The notes beneath the pieces were generated by a model that ran no database searches, had not been told where the DNA came from, and saw only the letters and a list, made by a program, of their open reading frames with translations. Below are positions 1 to 24,807 of a stretch of 24,807 bases of DNA, in pieces; the stretch's first letter is position 1; each line of letters opens with the position of its first letter. The stretch lies in contig WELB01000070.1 of NCBI GenBank assembly GCA_009602725.1, forward strand, positions 56,919 to 81,725. The letters run 5' to 3'. Made by a program: the position numbers and the translations under genes. The stretch is from Spirogloea muscicola. Taxonomy: Eukaryota > Streptophyta > Zygnematophyceae > Spirogloeales > Spirogloeaceae.

Positions 1-4890
<4,890 letters not shown>

Positions 4891-5291: not shown

Positions 5292-8001
5292 CTACATCTG
5301 AAGGATAACTTTACCATGCACCTCCTTGCTCGCGCGTGCCCTATGCGCCTCTGCTGCATCACTGAGTGGTAGCACCTTGCCGATGGGGACTTTGAGCCTG
5401 CCCTTGGATGCCAGCATCGCAATCTCCTCCAAGCCCTCCGGATCAGTCCTCGTCACCACCCATTGGTATTCTGTTGCTCACATGCAATACAATCTCGAGT
5501 TTATCTTCATCTCTGTCCAGGTCAAGTGTGAGCTGTGGCTGGCACCAAAACCACTTACAAAATGAACAGGCTTTGCTGGAGCAGGTCACGTGCTATGTGC
5601 CTGCAATCCCCGACATGATCAGGACCAGAAGCTGCAATGTTGCACAATGTATTCACCTATGTCATGCGACTGCTTGTATTCCATCTGCTTCTGCATGAGG
5701 CGAGCTGATGCCATTGCCCCGCCGACCACAAGACCGTACTCATCCGCGAATTTGACCAGCTCCCCCTACGCAGGTGAGGGCAAGCCTTGTCTATAAGCCT
5801 CAGTTCTCCAAGAAGTTTGTGACTTGCATCTGAGGTTCTGAGCTGCTCGGACTTGGCGTGTGCTACCGACCTGATGCACCCTTGTGCTATGCTACACGAG
5901 GCAAGCAATAATTGTTGAGGAAATTCAGTACATGGAGTTTTACATGGGCCACGGCAGTCTGAGGATAAGGTTATGAACCACGTAACTAATGGTAGAAGCT
6001 GGATGATAACAACTGTACCAGCAGGCCTTGTGCTTACTTGAAGTGTGAGGTAGACTCCTCCAGCTCTCAAAAGACCCACACCCATGGCCTCCGTCTCTGG
6101 CAGGTTGGGTGTCCCAATTGTGTCCAGCACAACATCGAAGGGACCCGACAACTCCTCCTTCAGATTCTGCAACAACTAATGTCATTGTATGCAGCACACG
6201 CTCCAGCTTAACACTATACACGAGTGCATGCAGAATTTGACCAAGCTCTGCACTTGGACGAATCCACTTTTACTTGAGCAATTTGTGTGCTGTTAGCTGC
6301 TTAATTTTGTGCCTGCCAAGGCAGTTAGGGAACTAGACCGACCCTGCAGGCGCCAAAAACAACCCCAGCATGCAAGTCAAGCTCCGATCCTCAGCACATG
6401 ACATCCTACCACGAATGTTGCTGTCATGACTTCTCAATTGTCACCACATCCAATGTGAGCTTTGTGTCGATGCAGGGCTTAGCTCTAGGGCACTGTCAGG
6501 CCGAATGGTATCCTACAGAGGAGTCGTAGTGCACGGAGCGCTTTGCGCCAAGTGCGCGTGTGCCTTCTAAGCTCTTGAAGCCGCAGGTGCAAGCCACCTC
6601 ACAGCCAGCCGCAACAGCGAGCTGGATGGCGGAGAGCCCGACTGCGCCCCCCCCTCCCAGCACCAGAACCTTCTGGCTGCACAGCATCCCTGCAAAGCAT
6701 GACAACCCCGTCGTTCTGCGGAAGAGATGCTAACGCCAAGCCCTTATCACTCAACTTAATATGCTACTGAATCTGAGCGCAAAGGAATCCTTACAAGCCT
6801 GGTTCTCATTTGGTGCTTGGAACAACCTCTGGACCTGACGAACCTACTGGCCATGCTGAGCTCATCAATAGTCGTTTGTCAGCAACTCGGGCACCCAATA
6901 GGGAGGATGGCGTACCCCTCTTTGATGCTGGCGATGCTCCGCAGCGCCCTCCAGGCTGTCAAGGCGCTGAAAGGGATGGCAGCAGCTTCCTGCGGCAGAA
7001 TTTGCAACTTGGAGTTGGCAATTGCCGCAACTTGGGAAGGAGTTATGCACTTACATTACAGCCTGCAGAAATTTCACCTTCATCTTGTGATACATTGCAT
7101 GCGACTTTTGTGACCTTGCTTCACCAAAGAAGGCAAATGTAGCTGAAGCTTGTTTGGCTGGGCATGCACCGACCTCATGGCTGAGTCCCGCAGGCTTGAC
7201 CGCGAGCTGGCTGTCCTCCAGGAGCGCGTACTGGCTGTACGTGCCGCGCTGAGCCGTGGGATGGAGCGCCCCGAAGACCTCGAGGCCCTCTCGCAAGCCG
7301 CGGACGTTGGCCCCGGCCTTGGCGACGACGCCCGACACATCCCTGCCCAGTATGAGTGGCAGGAGCGGCCCGAAGAGCGACTTGCCGTAGCCCTCCCGCA
7401 TCTGAAAGCGCCAGCGCTGTGCACAGCGTCAACATCTCAACGTTGCTCTGCCATGGCTGGACGAGTGCAAGGGCAAAGACCGCCACAGACGAAGCGCATG
7501 GCGCTCGTTTCCCTGCCAAAGCCACTTGAGGCCCAGGCTGGCCATCGGTGCTGGCTGGCAAGACCAGTGAGAGTGGCCTCTCCACGGCAGGGCCTCAACG
7601 TCCGCGCGACGGTGGCGGAAGCGGCCACGGCCATCAGCCTCGCAAACGAGCACGACTGGCGCTGCCGACGACGTCCAACGTCGGCGGCAGTGGCCACGGC
7701 CAGTCCTCGCCTTCTGACGAGCACGGCGAGTTGCGCTGCAGACGACGCCCATCCATCGCCACAGGCGGCTCGGGTGCGACGGCCTCACCCGGATGTCAAG
7801 GGGGTTGACGGCGGCGGCGCGCACGGCGACGAGGACGTGGCCGGGCCCGCAGTCCGGCACCGGCGTGTCGTGGCGCAGCTGCAGCGCCTCGGGCGGCCCG
7901 AACGCCGGCAGCACCACGGACGCGCACGTCGTCGCCAGCCCGCGGCGCGGCGCCTCCCAGGCCGCCCGGCCCAGCTCGCGCGCCGCCAAGCGCGCCGCCA
8001 T
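5292..8001 (-). CDS. RTN4IP1: RTN4IP1-like mitochondrial NADPH-dependent quinone oxidoreductase (MDR family), complete
   Basis: Complete 7-exon gene: 8001-7789, 7401-7174, 6989-6916, 6676-6517, 6166-6038, 5765-5657, 5470-5292 (TAG). The spliced length is 1092 nt, or 363 residues, normal for the family, and every junction is in phase with GT-AG introns. The first 25 or so residues (MAARLAARELGRAAWEA, then PRRGLATT) are Arg/Ala-rich with no acidic run, as in a mitochondrial presequence. The body matches plant RTN4IP1 homologues: VLPAFGPPEALQL, AVNPLDIRM, LPLILGRDVSGVV, VFGALHPTAQRGTYSQYALL, AAAIPFSALTAWRALRS, and the nucleotide-binding loop VLVLGGGGAVGLSAIQLA. Then come FDVVLDTIGTPN, GGVYLTLQ, a TRTDPEGLEEIA block and the end HGKVILQM. 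It lacks the zinc-ligand cysteines of classical alcohol dehydrogenases. In animals this protein reduces intermediates in coenzyme Q synthesis; the role here is inferred. A potential hairpin and a CGG repeat lie just upstream. Confidence 0.95.
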
Positions 8002-8022
8002 GACCGCGCCGGTGCCGGCAAC

Positions 8023-8063
8023 GGCAGAGGCACCCTTACGGCGGCGGTGGTGCCTCTACTGCC
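8023..8063 (-). promoter_or_regulatory. Potential stem-loop in the 5' leader of the RTN4IP1-like gene
   Basis: AGAGGCACC (8026-8034) and GGTGCCTCT (8049-8057) form a perfect 9-bp inverted repeat around a 14-nt loop. The stem extends by 3 bp (8023-8025 with 8061-8063) across a 3-nt bulge. It lies about 25 nt upstream of the start codon and would fold in the mRNA leader if transcription starts upstream of it. A regulatory role is inference. Confidence 0.45.
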
Positions 8064-11056: not shown

Positions 11057-14000
11057 CTAAAGCGCAGAGGGGTTCGAGGTAGGCTGCGGAGGGCAGTGGG
11101 ATGTGGCTCCGTCCTTATGGAGGGCGAGCCACTGCTCGCGGCCCTTGGCAGCATGGGAGACCATTTCTTTAAAAAGGCTGTTGGCGCCGTCGTAGTCGCA
11201 AATGGCAACTGTGCTCATGCGAACACGCCTCCCAAATGCCTAGGGTAACAAGAGAAACACCAAGTACTCAAGATGGGTAGCAGCAATACTGCAATTCTGA
11301 CCCACGTCGCAATCTAGGACAAGCATCAATCCACTCTGTTGCCAGGACAGAAGCTTGGCATGTACTTAGAAAGTGATGAACACCCACAAGAACCAAGCAT
11401 CACACCTGGGCTATGCGGCTCTTGGTAAGGGCGAAGACCACTGTCACTTCGTTCGCTCCAGCCTGCTGGAGAATGCTGGTGACTGTGCTATCTAATCCGC
11501 CTGCATCATTGGCCCCACTGCTCATATCCAGTAAGTGCATGCTACTTTGCTTCTTCTGTTTCCCAGTGGAATGCCAGGCTCAGCTATTGCAGCTGGCAAA
11601 GAGCTTGAGATCATTTCAGGACATCAGTTGTCGTGCTGACCTTCAGAAGTGATCTCCTCGATATTAGGGGCCACAATTATGCACTTGGCACGTTTTGTAC
11701 GCACTGCTCTGGACACCTCCCTCAAACCTACCACTAAACGCCTCTTCTTCTTGGCCTGCTAAACGAGAAGCTTGGATGAAATTTAGCGGATGCATATGCT
11801 CCCCACCAGGTTTTGCTCAACACCCATTTAACGAAGAAGCTCCTTGCTCATCCACATTCAGTCCAAGGTTTTCACTTAGCTTGTTCTTCTCTCCTGCTGC
11901 ACTACTAGCCATGGAATTCCATACCTTCAGAACATCTTTCGCCTTGGCACGCTCCTGGAAGCGTAGAAGCTCCTTCAGAAGTTCTGTTGTTACTCGGTTC
12001 AATTCTGTCGTGATGACTTGGTTGCAGTACCTGAAGAAAATAGTGCAGTATCAGCATGAATAAAAGCAGGGATTCAACCCTTATTTGCTTATTTTGCAGT
12101 GCCTCAAATAGTGGAGCAGAACTCCACAGCACATTATTGCAACTGCCTCCTGACTACACGCCCTCGAGAAGAACTGTTGCACTGTGACAAGTCAAACACT
12201 CAACTACCAGCAACCCTTGACCCACTCTAAAGCACTTCACGATGCAAATGAAAAGGGGGCAGAACCTTATATGTACGTCTGGTCCTATGTACGTGTTGGG
12301 CTTGGCCTTCTCCTTGGTCATCTCCTCCAGAGACTGCTGGTTAGGAGCGTGTGGCATTCCTGGCCACTCGTCAGAAGACCTGCTGAGACTGCTAGCCGGT
12401 TTCTGCTCAAATGACTGGCCTCCATGATCAGCCAGCCCGCCCAGCCAATCTTTCTCCCAACCTGGCAGCTGAGCCTGCTGCTCTAGCAAGTCCTCAGCAG
12501 CACTGGGGAGCCTGGCCTGGCTGCTGTTGCTGCTGTTGTCTCTCGCCTCCTCGTCGCTGTCTTCGCTGTGCCCCTCACTGAGGCCAGCATCGCTGCCGCC
12601 CTTGGACTCAGAACTGGCAGATATGGTACAGACGCCACAATTGTGGCAACAATGGGTAGACGTGGAGGTGCTCGCGACAGCACCTACGGTTGGCTTGGCG
12701 TTCGAGTCTCCCTCAGCAGCTGGTACAGCAACCAAGCCAACATTCAGACAGCAGAGTGAGTCACTACATACAGCTCTATTTACTCTTCAAGCATCATATC
12801 CCTGGCTATATTGCAAGCTCTGACCGTAACTTCCAAAGCAGCCATACTTTCCGGCTCATCTCAGGAGGGTGATGAAGCAATCCTGAGAATGGGAGCTCAC
12901 AATTGCCTTCCAAGACCTCTCCAGAACTCTGCTTCATTGCCCGCTCCCGGAGGATGACCTTCTTGAGGGCACTCAGCTTCTTCTTCTTGGGGACCAGCCT
13001 CTCCTTGCCTCGTCGCTGGATCAGCAACGTTGAGGACGCCACGTTGGGGTTGACGACCATCTGCATATCACGATATTGCCCTCTCACGGGACTGACACCT
13101 TGTGCGGAGGCTGAAGTGCCCTGGAAGGAGGCCTTGCGGTAGTTGTCAACAGGTGGCAGGGTCTGCTTCCCACCAGCCTGCCACAGGACAGGAGGATGGC
13201 AAACTCAGCTTAATGAGGACGACAAAGCCCACCAGCAAATATCCCAGGTAGTAGTAGACTGGTGCCAAGCTGACAAGGAGGGCAAAGGCTAGACAGATGG
13301 CGGAGGACAAGAAATAAACTGGCAGAGAACGTAGACCTTTCAGGACAAGTAATGAAGTGAAGTGCGTCTGTGTCAAGGCAGGACTTGGTTGTGGAGGTGA
13401 CAATTAAGTACAATCCTCATTCTGAGGGCCACTTGTCCTTGGACTGACCAAGCAAAGGACAGGCACAAGAAGCAAAGGGTAGAACAGGTTACCAAGCGCA
13501 AGGTCGTGGCTGCCGCTATAACATCAGCCATATATGTAGCGTGTCGCCTGTTTGCAGCTGTTGCGGCTGAAGCAGCTGTCACCTGGGCCTGCAGCAAGAC
13601 CTCCAGCATGGTGGTGTTACTGATGGAGACTGATGTGAAATCTTTGATCACCCACATTATTGTACAGAAAACAGTTATCACAGGAAAGCATCACACGCTG
13701 TGTCAGCTCCATGGACAAGATGCTGGACAGGTAGGCGCTAACCTGGGCTTCGACAAACTTGCGCTCCTCGGAGTTGATCCCGTCATGCTTGCTCAGAAGG
13801 TGCTGCTCCATAGCCGCAAACATCTTCAGGATCTTGCCGCAAGATAAGCACTTGAGCTGCACAAGATGCGCAACGAAGTGTAAAGCCGTCAACATAAGGC
13901 GGAGCGACAGCATGTAAGTAGCCGAGGATGCAGTGGCACTGGTCAGGAAGACCTGAAATCATCGCAGCGGGCTAAGAATCTGACGATGACATACAATTGG

Positions 14001-14609
14001 AGCTGTGGATAAGAAGACTGACATTGCCGTATGCATCCATCCGGCTCTTGCGCGCCTCCGCCGCGACCCGTGTGTGCAGGTCCATGTGCAGGTCCATGTA
14101 AACATGGGGCATTGCCAGGCTGTGCTGCTCGTACTGCGGAACTGAGGCTTCGGCGAGCCTGAGGGACATCAGCTGCCGGCACGACTCCAACACGTCGTAC
14201 TGGTCGACACCGTGCGCTGCAACTGCCGGAGGCTGCGCCACGTGCCTGTTGAAGACCTTGCTCTGCTGGTAGTGCTGCAACGAGTCAGCCTGCCAAGAAG
14301 CACGCTCATGGTTACCGGCTGAGCAGAAGAACCAAAGCCGTGCTGTGGCAAAGCTGGTGCAGAGCCAATTTGGCCAGCCATAAAGCTTTCAAGTTTGAAA
14401 TCATGTGCCTTACTGCTGGACCTAGCGAAACAGAATAACTGTCTAGGGACGCCAAGGTGCTCGTCCATGTGTGCAGGTGGGTTGTCGAGAGCCCAAACCT
14501 TGGCCGCAACGAAGGTCTGGATGGACGGGCCGGGAAGTCCAGTCCACTCCGAGGGGTGGGCGGCCCTCAGGAGCTCGTCCTCGAGGCGGAGCAGCGGCGG
14601 CCTCCGCTC
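11057..14609 (-). CDS. SBP2: SECIS-binding protein 2-like (SBP2) RNA-binding protein with C2H2-like finger and L7Ae domain
   Basis: SBP2 proteins bind the SECIS RNA element and direct selenocysteine insertion at UGA. Exons: 14609-14499, 14289-14023, 13856-13743, 13588-13493 (weakest), 13177-12901, 12719-12266, 12030-11925, 11755-11641, 11500-11406, 11239-11057 (TAG); about 605 residues plus a first exon upstream. All junctions are in phase. From the N-terminus: a helical block; a C2H2-like finger C-x2-C-(13)-H-x4-H (CLSCGK to HLLSKH); and a basic block KKKKLSALKKVILRER like the SECIS interaction domain. Next is an acidic Ser-rich linker with two C-x2-C pairs, then HIRYCNQV, LLKELLRFQER, KKKRRLVVGLREV, CIIVAPNIEEI, GGLD, VTVVFAL and VAICDYDGANSLFKEMV. 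The LGLREV-type loop separates SBP2 from other L7Ae proteins. The C-terminal four exons are near certain; joining the finger exons to them rests on phase alone. Confidence 0.85.
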
Positions 14610-18773: not shown

Positions 18774-21700
18774 TTAGATAGCCAGGAGCACTAAGAAGCA
18801 CAATCTAGGGCTTGGCCTAGCAGCAAGTGTCTCTTGGACCATTGAGCCCATGTCGGAGCTATCTGTAGTAAACTCTGTCCTACTTGTGCTCATGCCAAAG
18901 GCTTCCAGGTTCTCCAGAATCGACAGCACGTCTTTCATGTCTGGTCGCTGGCTTGCCCGAAACAAAGTACAAAGCAGGCCTGCTCTGAGCATGCCCAGCA
19001 TCTCCCCCTGCTTCTCAAGCATAAACGGCCTCAGAATCGGGTCTAGACACGTTTCCAAGGCAGCCCCCGCTGATATTTCACCTCTCACCCAGCTGACAAG
19101 ATCGCTCCTCTGAAATGAGGGGTCCTGGAAGAAGGGATCTGTCGGCTTCCTGCCAGTGACGGTCTGCAGTAGCATCACGCCGTAGCTGTAGACATCGCTC
19201 TTCTGGCTTGTTTGGCCCAACTCAGCATAGTCAGGTGCCATGTAACCCACAGTACCTGCACAGGTCTCCCCAACCGACTGACAATGAGAACAATTGATGC
19301 TCAGACAGTGGACATTAGGTAATCATGGAGATGTAAGCGGATCACGAGTGTGACCATGTCCTGGTCTTGAAAGTGGCAACCAATTGCAACTCAAGCAACT
19401 CAAGCAAGCACAAGAGTGACCCACTGCAGACAGGCGCAGTTATGCAGCCCACCCAGCCCACAAGATTGCTCTTACAATGGAATGAATTTTCTGGGTCTGA
19501 ATAACAGCAGCCAAACCAACACTCCAAGCACCCAATAGCATAGTTGCTCGTAGGAGATACTGCTGCCCATGCCCACCTGCAGCGACCGTGGACATGTGGG
19601 TGAAGCGGGTCTCGAGCAGCCTCGCAAGCCCGAAGTCGGCCACATAACCCTCCAGGTCATTGTCGAGGAGGATGTTCGCCGGCTTGACATCCCGGTGCAC
19701 AATCCGTGGCTCGCAGTCAAAGTGCAGTTACTTGATGCCGTGGGCGGCGGCCGTGAGGATCTTCACTCTGGCATCCCACAAATTGAGGTCGGGGTGCTTG
19801 ACACTTCCCTGCATGAGGAAGCTATCCAGGTTGCCATTCGTCATATACGGGTATACGAGAAGCACATCCTGGCTCTTTGCATACTGCTGGCCTTCGCCGG
19901 GCAGGAAGTACGCAAGGACAGGGACGAGGTTGCGGTGTCGGATCTGGCCCAATGTCTGGACCTCCGCATGGACCTCCCTCCAACCTTGAGAGCTATCAGG
20001 TGCTAGCTTCTTGACGGCCAGCATCATCTTAGGGCTCAGATCAGCCCTGCACAAGCGCTTGAAGCAGAAGGTCACAGTTGAACTCGAGGCTGGCCATAAG
20101 TGTACCTGCCAGCTAAAGCACAAGTGCTTGCACTAGTTTACAGCAATCAAGGCGGACAGCACAACATCAACATGCTAACCTGTACACCTTGCCGAAGCCA
20201 CCTCGATCAAGAACCATTTTGTCGCTGAAGTTGTCGGTGGCGTTCACAATGTCCGCATACGTGAAATGCTCGTCAGCCGGCCAGAGTGGGAGGAGCACAA
20301 GCTTGCCAGGCTCTTCAGCTTGAAGCTTCTCAAATTGCTGACTTCTCCACCGACGCCACAGAAAGAGGAGAAGCAAGAGGACGATGACAGCAGTCATGAC
20401 GCCAATCACGATGCCCACAATGGCACCTGCACCAAGACTGGAGTGGTGGCTTGTCCCACTTTCTCCTCCAGTGCCTTGTATGCTACATGCAGCAAGCGGT
20501 GGGCCACAAAGTCCTGGGTTGCCTGCAAAGGATGAGCTGCCGAAATTGCTCCCTAGAACTATGGGAATGCTTCCAGATAGATTGTTCATTGAAACGTTGA
20601 AGGATGAAATGACAGTGCTCCTAAACGGTGGTATGGGCCCAGTCAATTGATTGCTGCTAAAGTCGACGGCAGCCAAGAGGGTCTGCACTGCCAGCTGAGC
20701 AGGGATGGGGCCAGTGAGTTTGTTGTGGTCCAGGTAAATTTCTTGGAGGCTTGAGAGATTCGCCAGAGTTGGGGGAATACCACCACTCAGGGCATTGTTT
20801 GAGAGCACCAATGAAGAGATCGATGCAGCACTACCAAGTTTTGCTGGAATGTTGGAGTCCAGGTGATTGTAAGATAAGTCCAGAGCGCGAAGATTCTGCA
20901 GCTTGCCAAGCTCCATAGGGATACTGCCTGTCAAATCTACAACAACACAGCAGCAACCGCCCATCACTATACAAGCTGCTTCCTGAATCATCAGCCATGC
21001 CTGCGGGTTGGTATATTATTTGCCAATACGATCTGGCTGGGAGATACGCTGAGGCCTTACTGTTGTTATCAGCCAAAAGTATGACCAGGTTGGTGCAGTT
21101 CCCTAGCTCCGCAGGCACGCTCCCATTGAGCTTATTGTTGCCAACATCCAGAAGGGAAAGTCCCTGCAGCATGCCCCATGATGCTGGAATCCCACCAGAG
21201 AGGTGATTATTGGAGACACGGATCTGAGAGCTTGCTGCTAAGGTTGGACAGCATGGTCGGAAGTGGGCCTGACAGCCCATTGTTCTCGAGGTGCAAGTCA
21301 AAGAGCTGCGAACAGTTGGCCAGTGTATTGGGGATCTGGCCACTCAAGCTGCAGCAACCGAGTCACAAGCTCGGCACAGCCTCCTTGCTCACATGAATAT
21401 GAGCACAAGTTTTTGGCATTGACTTGAGTGGCCTTGATGCAGTAGTACATAAGATCTGCAGCTGAGAAAGAATATCTGCATCCTAGCATAATGTTTTCCT
21501 ACGCCAATTGCCATGCGTAAGGGCTGGGAGAGGATGCAAGGAAACAGCATGTAGAGAAGAGCCAAATTTGCCTGTTGTTGAAGAGGAAAAGGCGGTCAAG
21601 ATTCGTGAGGCGACCAAGCTCTGGTGGTATAGAGCCTGTGAGGCTGCACCGGGGCAGTGAAGCCACTGTTTGTATCAGTAAGCATTCCATTGCGTGCATC

Positions 21701-21950
21701 ATGTGCCTTGGCTCGAGGCCACACCTGTACTCTGCGATACTGCTTACTAACAGGTCAAAGAAGCAAGCACAATTCGAGATCCAACATATTGGCCACAATG
21801 CCTGCAATTGCAGTAAGCCTTTCCGTTGACAAGATTGCCATGCAATCTTGACATAGGATTGGTGCAAACAGTGAACGATGGGTGGAAATGGGTGGACATG
21901 AAAGGAACTGGCTGGCTAGTGGTGCTGCTGAAGAGGAGGGTAGGTGGGGG

Positions 21951-22022
21951 GAACCCTAAACCCTAAACCTAAACCCCAAACTCCTAAACTCTAACGCGTA
22001 TACATATATAAGGGGGGGGGGG
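21951..22022. repeat. Telomere-like tract with (TA)n and G11 in a receptor kinase intron
   Basis: CCCTAAA-type units (21954-21993) are followed by TATACATATATA and a run of 11 G (22012-22022). The tract sits in the intron between LRR exons 22118-22047 and 21643-21572. The orientation is the same as in the anoctamin introns. Confidence 0.8.
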
Positions 22023-24312
22023 AGTTTAGATGGTGCTGCTACTTGCTTGTTGTTGTAGAGAATCAGATCCTGAAGCGACGCAGCCATGGCGAGCTCCGCT
22101 GGGACAGACCCAGAGAGGCTGCGCAGCAATGATGACACATCAACACTCCTGCTTGCACCTTGCACAGCCTCCTGCTAGCCTGGATCCTAGCCTCTGCCAA
22201 GGAGCGCATGCATGACTCTCACACATTATGTTGTAAATATGCTACCACTCACCTATTGCTAGAAAGGTCAAGGATCTTGAGATTGTTGAGATGCCCCAGG
22301 GTGCCGGGAATAGCACCAGTCAAACTGCATGGGAAATTACAGTACAAGGCAGCAATATCGAAATAGCTGAGATGCAGTAATGCTTGTGATCTTTACACAC
22401 TCAACCCTAATCCATCTAGAGATTCCGCCAGCCCTAGAACTCAGAACCTGCTCTGTATGGCATTGCTGAATGCCCCACTTGGCCTATGCACTGGACCATT
22501 TGGGTTAAGGGGCACATGCAGATGCAATAAGTAGATTGGCGTCTGCTTACTTATTGGAGGTAAGCTTGAGCTGTTCCAAATCTGAGCAGTTGCCGAGCTC
22601 CGGGGGAATAGACCCCTCCAGCCTGCGCCAAGATGCTGAAAATGCATGAAGACTTGTGCTATCTGTAGCCAAGCCGTTCAAGTGCTAGAGCTTGAATGGC
22701 CGGCTGTCATTACTCTATCTGCTAGCCTAGTACCTGTTGTTGCTGAGGATGAGGATGTTTAGATTCTCGCTCAGCGTTCCGAGCTCCACTGGGATGCGTC
22801 CTGTCAGCCTGCTCACAGTGTAGGAATATGGTGCTGCAGCTATGATCTGGAGTGGCAATACCAGCAACCTGCGACAATTAAGCTGCAAGTACTGAAAGCG
22901 AGGAAAGTGGAGGCCTGGCATGGTGGTTCTCACTCGTTGGTGCTGATGTCAAGCTGCTGCAGCTTGGAAAGGCGCCCCAGCTCCGGTGGGATGCCTCCAC
23001 TCAAGCTATAGTAGGCCCACAACGAATAATCAAATGTCTCTTGTCTTATCATGGAGGACACGGCAAATGCTGGGAAATATGAGGTGGCAGGGAGCTACCT
23101 GTTTACAGAGACGACAAGCATGTTGAGGTTTGCAAGGCCGCCGAGAGCTGGCGGGATGTTGCCATTCAGGCTGCGGAGGTCAAAGGTGAGTTGAGTGGTC
23201 AGATAGTCAGCTTGATTGGCCGACATGGAGGAGCGAGAGGGACTGCAGAGCGAAGATGGACGGAGGAGGGACAAGGGTTGCAGTACCTATTGTTGGACAG
23301 GAAGATCTTTGTGAGGTTTGTGCGGCCCAACTCGGGAGGAATGTTGGCAGTTAGCCTGGTAGGACAACAGGAAGGCGCAGCCATTCCTCAGGCCTCTGGA
23401 TGTGGTGAGCGTCAGATGAGGCGGAGCTAGTGAGCTGAGAAACACCAGAGCTGCGAGAGGAGGACGGGAGCTGGGCACTGCACCGATTGAAGCCGCCGCT
23501 GAGGACTTGGAGCTGCTTGAGGCCGTCGAGCTCCGGTGGTATGGGTCCTGTGAGGCTGCAGCACGATCAAAGGTATGCGAGACTTCAGAGGGCAATTATC
23601 GTGATGTAGCTACCGCCGTCAACAGGTGCGGCATGAGGTCAATGGCCCACTTGTTGTTGTCAAAGTAGAGCTGCTGGAGAGCGCTGCAGTTTGCCAGCTC
23701 CGGGGGGATGCCGCCGGCCGGTCAGCCTGCCATTGATGACTCGAGCATGCGCTCGGAGACGGCTGTCAGTAAAAACCGAGGAGGACGTCTACGAAGAAGC
23801 AGAAGTGGAAAGATGGACGAGGACCCGAGCCACCATGGCCACAGCGCCGGGGCACAGAGCGATCGTCGAGCACCGGTTGCTCTAAACGCCAAAGGCCTGC
23901 AGCTTCTGGAGCCGGCCAATCTCCGCAGGTATGGCGCCCTCCAGCCTGCGACCTCCATCTCGCAATTCATCAACATCCGCCATGCATGGGCCAAGCAGCG
24001 TGCGCTGCCGACAATGGTTTGAGAATGCGAAGAGTCGTACAGATTGTGGTTGACGTAGAGGTTGGTGACGTTGACCAGGTTGCCAAGCTCCGGCGGTATC
24101 GTCCCCGTGAGCCTGAGTGCGACAAGGGAGGCAAGGGTCCGTCAGCCGACTTTCAGCAGAGAGGGGTCCGAGAGCCGGAGGCGAGGCTGAGGTGCCGCCT
24201 GCAGCCTGACCTGTTGGGGTCCAGGTAGAGATAGACCAGGTTGGTACAGTTGCCGAGCTCCGGTGGGATGGGGCCAGAGAACCTGGCAGGGAGGCATGGA
24301 GTCAGAAGTGGA

Positions 24313-24334
24313 GGGAGGGAGGGAGGGGGGGGGG
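24313..24334 (+). repeat. G-run array, possible G-quadruplex
   Basis: GGGAGGGAGGGAGGG merges into a longer G run. It satisfies the four-run G-quadruplex pattern on the + strand and lies in the intron between the first two visible receptor kinase exons. The transcribed RNA would carry the C-rich complement. Confidence 0.6.
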
Positions 24335-24622
24335 AAGGAGGACGTCGGAGGAGGGTGGCACTCATGCCGGCCAGCACCAGGCAGGCAGCTCCAGAGGGAG
24401 ATATTGTCAAGAGCCGCGGAAGTATTGAAATGAGACAGACGGGAGGGTGGTAAGTTTTGTGTGCTCTGGCTGCTGCTCAACTGGTTGGCGGCTGCTGCGA
24501 AGAACTTGAGCCGCTTGAGCTTGCCAAGCTCTGGCGGCAGGGGCCCAGAGAACTTGTTAAGCTCCACGTTGAGGTACTGAAGCCCACTCAAACTGCCGAC
24601 CTCGGGCGCCAACGTCCCTTTT

Positions 24623-24807
24623 AGGTTCAGTGCGCCTCACTGGATAGCCGCCACAGCGCTGCCCAGCTCCACACAACATTGCTCGTAAGAAGAGGCTGCC
24701 CGCAGCTCTTGACAAGAGGGAGGGGGTGACAGGGCTTTTTACAGGTGCAGGCGAGAAAGGAGAGGTGCACAGAGAAGGTGTGGAGGGTGGGGGGGGAGAG
24801 AGGTGGG
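24623..24807. other. Window edge, probable intron of the receptor kinase gene
   Basis: On the minus strand this is pyrimidine-rich (CCCACCTCTCTCCCCCCCCA and similar) and shows no LRR. An in-frame TGA lies above the first visible LRR exon, so earlier exons (signal peptide, LRR cap) must sit further upstream, outside the window. Confidence 0.5.

What the first reader, a model, noticed from the sequence alone, without database searches (positions are those of the whole stretch)
11057..14609. SBP2-like SECIS-binding protein gene in a plant-like genome
The last four exons and the end of the exon before them encode a near-canonical SBP2 L7Ae module: YCNQV, LLKELLRFQER, RRLVVGLREV, GGLD, VVFAL, DYDGANSLF. 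A SID-like basic block (LSALKKVILRER) lies upstream. SBP2 acts in selenocysteine insertion, which green algae have but land plants are thought to have lost. Either this lineage keeps the selenoprotein machinery, or the protein has been kept for another RNA job.
Basis: partly seen in the sequence, partly recalled or inferred. Interest (0 to 1): 0.72.

Follow-up and report, generated by a model that had tools for sequence, protein, structure and literature searches.

The report
SECIS-binding protein gene in streptophyte alga
This is a genuine gene for SBP2, the protein that helps cells insert selenocysteine, in what appears to be a single-celled alga closely related to land plants; its presence there has already been published, so it is ordinary for that lineage.

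Summary
Window 14609-11057 (minus strand) carries ten exons of an SBP2 gene, kept in frame in all three copies found in this genome. In sequence it matches solved SBP2 (7zjw, E=1.4e-38) in both the RNA-binding domain and the SID core; the next hit has E=0.0043. The genome is most likely the zygnematophyte alga Spirogloea muscicola (inferred, not named by any tool), not a land plant. The selenocysteine trait looks active: SepSecS and selenophosphate synthetase genes lie on three contigs each. The two SECIS matches of a genome-wide search (E<=10, partial scoring, below Rfam's cut-off) both lie behind thioredoxin reductase copies ending Gly-Cys-UGA-Gly-stop; a third copy agrees. EFSec could not be searched (tool did not complete); PSTK and tRNA-Sec were not found. 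Liang et al. 2019 already reported a complete Sec machinery in 'Spirotaenia sp.', which I take to be this alga. One detail for which I found no description is a C2H2 zinc-finger-like exon in the predicted N-terminal half.

The parts
14499..14609 (-). SBP2 exon 2 (first supported exon; no family match)
   Evidence: CAG acceptor, GT donor and frame kept in 3 of 3 copies; belonging to the same transcript is inferred
14023..14289 (-). SBP2 exon 3
   Evidence: borders and frame kept in 3 of 3 copies
13743..13856 (-). SBP2 exon 4, with a C2H2 zinc-finger-like motif CLSCGKILKMFAAMEQHLLSKH (C-x2-C-x12-H-x4-H)
   Evidence: exon protein identical in 3 of 3 copies; Pfam zf-C2HE and zf-C2H2_2 only below cut-off (E 0.026 and 0.11)
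13493..13588 (-). SBP2 exon 5
   Evidence: borders and frame kept in 3 of 3 copies
12901..13177 (-). SBP2 exon 6: SID core (GKERLVPKKKKLSALKKVILRERAMKQ)
   Evidence: matches SBP2 chain 7zjw residues 493-544 (17.2 bits); 14 of 27 identical
12266..12719 (-). SBP2 exon 7: acidic/serine-rich linker
   Evidence: borders and frame kept in 3 of 3 copies
11925..12030 (-). SBP2 exon 8: start of RNA-binding domain, YCNQV...RFQER
   Evidence: matches 7zjw SBP2
11641..11755 (-). SBP2 exon 9: L7Ae core, RRLVVGLREV
11406..11500 (-). SBP2 exon 10: L7Ae core, GGLD...VVFAL
11057..11239 (-). SBP2 exon 11: end of L7Ae module, DYDGANSLF, and stop codon

Best explanation
The gene is a true SBP2 orthologue in a Sec-using streptophyte alga. 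Its L7Ae module binds the kink-turn of SECIS elements in selenoprotein 3'-UTRs; with the SID it helps the Sec elongation factor deliver Sec-tRNA at UGA. At least one client exists in the same genome: an animal-type thioredoxin reductase (three copies) ending GC-UGA-G-stop, with a SECIS-like element about 120 nt downstream. Shown here: gene structure, homology, purifying selection, the UGA/SECIS pairing, SepSecS and SPS genes. Inferred: RNA binding, interaction with EFSec, actual Sec insertion, and the species name.
For: PDB best hit SBP2 7zjw E=1.4e-38, RBD and SID both matched, next hit 0.0043. In an 11-row tree the three copies group with 7zjw SBP2 apart from eL8, L7Ae and eS12, support 100/98; 61 of 146 RBD positions identical. 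Exon borders and frame kept in 3 of 3 copies; dN/dS 0.075, 0.146, 0.063 in the L7Ae exons. SepSecS: 14 exon matches on three contigs (rings in 1 of 14 control genomes). SPS: 8 exon matches on three contigs, supported by the reading frames and motif MRCGGCGAK in 3 of 3. Genome-wide SECIS_1: 2 matches at E<=10, both behind thioredoxin reductase. GC-TGA-G-TAA in 3 of 3 copies, core ATGA 121, 121 and 124 nt after the UGA. TXNRD identity: TIGR01438 is the best family for 4 of 4 fragments; PDB rat TrxR1 aligned up to the Cys before the Sec position.
Against: EFSec never searched. PSTK not found (TIGR03575, 0 matches; the 4 PF08433 matches read as KTI12). tRNA-Sec not found by RF01852 (one match, a tRNA-Ser with anticodon UGA) or two patterns. 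SECIS scores (23.7, 22.1, 20.1 bits) are below the gathering score of 35; the SECIS search also rang weakly in 4 of 14 prokaryote controls. The lowest-energy fold showed the SECIS stem in 110-base windows of C207 and C25, but in 90-base windows only in C25, not in C207 or C31. C31 has AG for the apical AA. The selD model rings in 14 of 14 controls, so it is unspecific. All exon-wise matches of SepSecS and SPS lie under the whole-protein cut-offs. GPx uses Cys in 5 of 5 genes found; SPS is the Cys form. No transcript data.
Confidence: 0.9

Rival explanations
1. The protein is an SBP2 descendant kept for another RNA job (rRNA or kink-turn binding) after the Sec trait was lost.
For: tRNA-Sec and PSTK not found, EFSec untested. 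The selenoproteome seems tiny: GPx and SPS use Cys, no Rdx match. SECIS matches are weak and fold in only some windows.
Against: Three TXNRD genes keep GC-UGA-G-stop and a SECIS core, with the coding stretch 5' of the UGA 96.6% identical in three copies. A lost trait would be expected to leave the UGA changed to Cys or the tail decayed (inference). The SID is conserved. Liang 2019 reports the complete machinery in the genome I take this to be.
Confidence: 0.07
2. The domain belongs to eL8, eL30, NHP2 or SNU13-type L7Ae proteins and only resembles SBP2.
For: The L7Ae fold is shared; Pfam names only the superfamily.
Against: E=1.4e-38 to SBP2 against 0.0043 for eL8, 0.012 or worse for archaeal L7Ae and 0.91 for eL30; SID present; tree. 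eL30, NHP2 and SNU13 were not among the tree rows.
Confidence: 0.01
3. Exons 2-5 (with the zinc-finger-like exon) are a separate upstream gene and SBP2 starts in or near exon 6. This concerns the gene's extent and is compatible with the best explanation.
For: No family match over its cut-off in exons 2-5; dN/dS is higher there (0.29-0.38); start codon not found.
Against: Phases join exon 5 to exon 6 in 3 of 3 copies and no stop codon intervenes in the spliced frame.
Confidence: 0.2

Closest known systems
SECIS-binding protein 2 (SBP2, SECISBP2)
   Same: SID core with VILRE where human has IILKE, RFQER where animals have RFQDR, GGLD, whole L7Ae module; 61 of 146 RBD positions identical to 7zjw SBP2.
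   Different: phmmer matched no stretch outside SID and RBD; the predicted N-terminal half carries a C2H2-like motif; HIRY stands where 7zjw has FRDY.
SBP2 of 'Spirotaenia sp.' (taken to be Spirogloea muscicola) and other Zygnematophyceae, Liang et al. 2019, PMC6627142
   Same: Probably this very gene set: complete Sec machinery, copy number raised by genome triplication, 1-3 selenoproteins.
   Different: Sequences not compared; the supplements could not be read here; the parts of the text that I saw do not describe SBP2 domains.
Selenoprotein thioredoxin reductase (TXNRD, client)
   Same: GCUG C-terminus and downstream SECIS-like element, as in animal TrxR (the animal GCUG end is recalled).
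   Different: SECIS below Rfam's gathering score; AG instead of AA in one of three copies.

Membership tests
SBP2 | L7Ae RNA-binding domain closer to SBP2 than to ribosomal or snoRNP L7Ae proteins | tested here: met
   (eL30, NHP2 and SNU13 not in the tree)
SBP2 | SID core upstream of the RBD (K517-R543 in human) | tested here: met
   definition from passages of PMC2746813
SBP2 | RFQDR-type motif before the L7Ae core, needed for Sec incorporation | tested here: met
   RFQER in 3 of 3 copies; motif
SBP2 | Binds SECIS RNA and supports Sec insertion | not testable with these tools
   needs biochemistry
Functional eukaryotic Sec trait in this genome | SepSecS | tested here: met
   14 exon matches on three contigs, best E 2.7e-22, none over the whole-protein cut-off; control rings in 1 of 14
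Functional eukaryotic Sec trait in this genome | Selenophosphate synthetase | tested here: met
   8 exon matches on three contigs, none over the cut-off, and the model rings in 14 of 14 controls; rests on the reading frames and MRCGGCGAK in 3 of 3
Functional eukaryotic Sec trait in this genome | Selenoprotein with in-frame UGA plus SECIS | tested here: met
   TXNRD, UGA in 3 of 3 copies; SECIS-like element in 3 of 3, below the gathering score, fold dependent on window
Functional eukaryotic Sec trait in this genome | EFSec | not tested
   TIGR00475 search not answered 12 times
Functional eukaryotic Sec trait in this genome | PSTK | tested here: inconclusive
   0 matches; 4 PF08433 matches read as KTI12; search is exon by exon
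Functional eukaryotic Sec trait in this genome | tRNA-Sec | tested here: inconclusive
   not found; only 53 of 7899 first-look candidates were scored

The most novel reading that the evidence does not exclude
Streptophyte-algal SBP2 carries an N-terminal C2H2 zinc finger not known from animal SBP2, and three full SBP2 copies are kept under selection to serve a selenoproteome reduced to essentially one enzyme, thioredoxin reductase: a snapshot of the Sec trait just before the loss seen in land plants.
Probability: 0.35. Interest if true: 0.4.

Novelty: already known. Interest (0 to 1): 0.22.

Why it matters
It supports the view that the Sec trait persists in the algal sister group of land plants, and it ties SBP2 to a concrete client gene with an element that can be tested. 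The main claim has been in print since 2019. The open points are small: the zinc-finger-like exon, and why three SBP2 copies survive for so few selenoproteins.

Tried and rejected
Land-plant origin: judged unlikely. The genome has triplicated genes and contig sizes fitting Spirogloea muscicola, and Liang 2019 found no Sec machinery in its vascular-plant transcriptomes and five embryophyte genomes. Its Table 1 does list SBP2 in mosses (5) and liverworts (5); the authors think that likely contamination.

GPx and SPS as selenoproteins: rejected. GPx has Cys in 5 of 5 genes found, in three of them by joining a codon split by an intron; SPS has Cys in 3 of 3. Rdx family (SelT/W/H, recalled): no match, weak evidence because exons are short.

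tRNA-Sec: the single RF01852 match is a tRNA-Ser with anticodon UGA, in an AT-rich tRNA-bearing stretch that I take to be plastid DNA. Two pattern searches gave 1 and 4 hits, fewer than their backward controls (4 and 12); ARAGORN and cmscan found no tRNA in any of the 5 loci.

PF08433 matches taken as PSTK: rejected, they read as KTI12 (label from recall).

An open frame joining exon 4 upstream to about 13958 was rejected because the C158 copy has a frameshift there; ending exon 2 further downstream was rejected because the C150 copy has a 4-base deletion there. The window has no Rfam match at gathering score and no tRNA by ARAGORN. Searches used mixed strands and were redone. A first motif script for the SPS site found nothing and a second found one of three copies before one search found all three. 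No structure was predicted: I judged that a spliced protein does not fit that tool's letter-for-letter rule and did not send it.

Full report
What is in the window. On the minus strand, ten exons between 14609 and 11057 join, with GT-AG borders and compatible phases, into a 605-aa open frame ending at a stop at 11057. I found the borders by aligning the window gene with two other copies in the same genome (C158 and C150), which brought in as L7Ae matches. In 3 of 3 copies the ten acceptors and donors are kept and the frame stays open; exon lengths differ by a 6-base indel in exon 6 and a stop 7 codons later in the two other copies. Exon 1 and the start codon are not resolved: the other two copies have runs of N there. 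Similarity of the three loci extends beyond the gene, downstream to about 8.1 kb in the window.

It is SBP2. The translation matches SBP2 of PDB entry 7zjw at E=1.4e-38, in two stretches: the RNA-binding domain (query 424-586, 118.8 bits) and the SID core (227-279, 17.2 bits). The next hit, eL8, has E=0.0043. In an 11-row tree the three copies and 7zjw SBP2 form one clade (100/98) apart from eL8, archaeal L7Ae and the genome's own eS12 and eL8. The tree is small, four of its eight inner branches are weak, it lacks eL30, NHP2 and SNU13, and the 7zjw branch is long (1.16). Motifs described by Donovan and Copeland (PMC2746813, passages seen) are present: VILRE where human has IILKE, and RFQER where animals have RFQDR. 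Of the 8 L7Ae-family matches in the genome, 3 are SBP2, 3 eS12 and 2 eL8 (the labels eS12 and eL8 are my recognition of the sequences). The search is exon-wise, so more may exist.

Selection. Nei-Gojobori dN/dS among the three copies is 0.063-0.146 in the L7Ae exons, 0.148-0.336 in exons 6-7 and 0.292-0.375 in exons 2-5. The three copies are therefore under constraint, the RNA-binding part most.

Which organism. G000 has 153 Mb in 471 contigs. SBP2, SepSecS, SPS and thioredoxin reductase each match on three contigs. Liang et al. 2019 (PMC6627142; parts 1 and 2 of 5, passages, and the figure-and-table section seen) used a zygnematophyte genome, 'Spirotaenia sp.', with a recent triplication. A 2024 paper (PMC11096116, passages; table headings not seen) gives for Spirogloea muscicola CCAC 0214 the figures 174, 84.7, 566.4, 17,449 and 95.2, which I read as megabases, a percentage, N50 in kb, scaffolds and completeness. 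Contigs C82, C83 and C97 here are 568, 590 and 557 kb, roughly where such an N50 would fall; I did not compute the N50. I take the genome to be that species with small scaffolds left out. This is inference: no tool named it, and that 'Spirotaenia sp.' is Spirogloea muscicola is recalled.

The Sec trait. SepSecS: 14 exon matches on three contigs, none over the whole-protein cut-off; the model rings in 1 of 14 control genomes. SPS: 8 exon matches on three contigs, none over the cut-off, and this model rings in 14 of 14 controls; the identification rests on the reading frames, which also show an N-terminal oxidoreductase-like part before the SPS domain, as Liang describes for clade I, and on the motif MRCGGCGAK with Cys in 3 of 3. 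A search of the whole genome for SECIS_1 gave two matches at E<=10 (2.27 and 6.12; 133 of 1611 candidates scored; 4 of 14 prokaryote controls also gave weak matches). Both lie behind a thioredoxin reductase gene. Its last exon ends Gly-Cys-TGA-Gly-TAA, aligned to rat TrxR1 up to the residue before the Sec position. A third copy on C31 has the same ending. The SECIS core ATGA lies 121, 121 and 124 nt after the UGA. The scores are 23.7, 22.1 and 20.1 bits, below the gathering score of 35; the C31 copy has AG where the others have the apical AA. Lowest-energy folds show the SECIS stem in 110-base windows of C207 and C25, but in 90-base windows only in C25, not in C207 or C31. Identity across the three copies is 0.966 in the last coding stretch, 0.826 between the UGA and the SECIS, 0.911 in the core and 0.911 downstream, so the core is not more conserved than what follows it. 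The case for the element rests on its place behind a UGA-ending TXNRD, in three copies, more than on its score.

Against this reading. EFSec was not tested: the same request did not complete 12 times. PSTK: none, KTI12 only. tRNA-Sec: none. The genome search is exon-wise, scores only part of the first-look candidates, and the assembly is probably partial, so these are weak negatives; but they are negatives. GPx uses Cys in 5 of 5 genes found and Rdx gave nothing, so thioredoxin reductase is the only selenoprotein I found.

What is known. Liang et al. [quoted passage not shown] In their Table 1 SBP2 counts are 27 for 40 zygnematophyte transcriptomes, 0 for the four vascular-plant groups, and 5 each for mosses and liverworts, which they hold to be likely contamination. 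Other passages seen agree: few selenoproteins in Klebsormidium and more in some other streptophytes (PMC7539508), and no true selenoproteins in vascular plants (PMC13103439). Searches for Spirogloea with selenoprotein, thioredoxin reductase with selenoprotein and Zygnematophyceae, and selenocysteine with Mesotaenium listed only PMC11096116 and PMC6627142. So the finding is real, correctly read, and already known in substance.

A small open point. Exon 4 encodes CLSCGKILKMFAAMEQHLLSKH, a C-x2-C-x12-H-x4-H pattern identical in the three copies. Pfam zinc-finger models match only below their cut-offs. One literature search combining SECIS-binding protein, zinc finger, algae and selenoprotein listed a single paper, on ferroptosis, of which I saw only the listing, and I could not look at other algae. 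Whether this exon is in the SBP2 mRNA needs transcripts.

Noticed in passing
window about 18774-24636, minus strand: A leucine-rich-repeat receptor-like kinase gene: LRR and protein kinase matches in 3 of 4 frames scanned; further LRR-like frames up to 24636 by reading.
   Followed up: partly
window about 5657-8055, minus strand: A zinc-type alcohol dehydrogenase / quinone oxidoreductase-like gene: ADH_N over its cut-off at 7051-7428, ADH_zinc_N below its cut-off at 6496-6729, two other frames without match. Similarity to the other two SBP2 loci comes close to this gene.
   Followed up: partly
window 15778, 15952, 16267 (+) and 17977 (-): A dispersed repeat with the core AGCCAGCCCAAAAAGAATGGACAATGTCC: 4 places in the window and 27 in 14 of 59 other fetched loci (several loci overlap), with up to 5 differences. 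Possibly a SINE-like element.
   Followed up: partly
L032 (C158 copy), reverse-complement positions 3189-3637: 64 perfect units of TTTAGGG (the plant-type telomere repeat, recalled) lie inside the contig, upstream of the SBP2 copy and next to an N gap.
   Followed up: no
L057, L058, L059 (C207, C25, C31): Animal-type thioredoxin reductase with GC-UGA-G-stop and a SECIS-like element in three copies; one copy has AG in place of the apical AA.
   Followed up: yes
L037, L039, L041: Selenophosphate synthetase behind an oxidoreductase-like N-terminal part, Cys form, three copies.
   Followed up: partly
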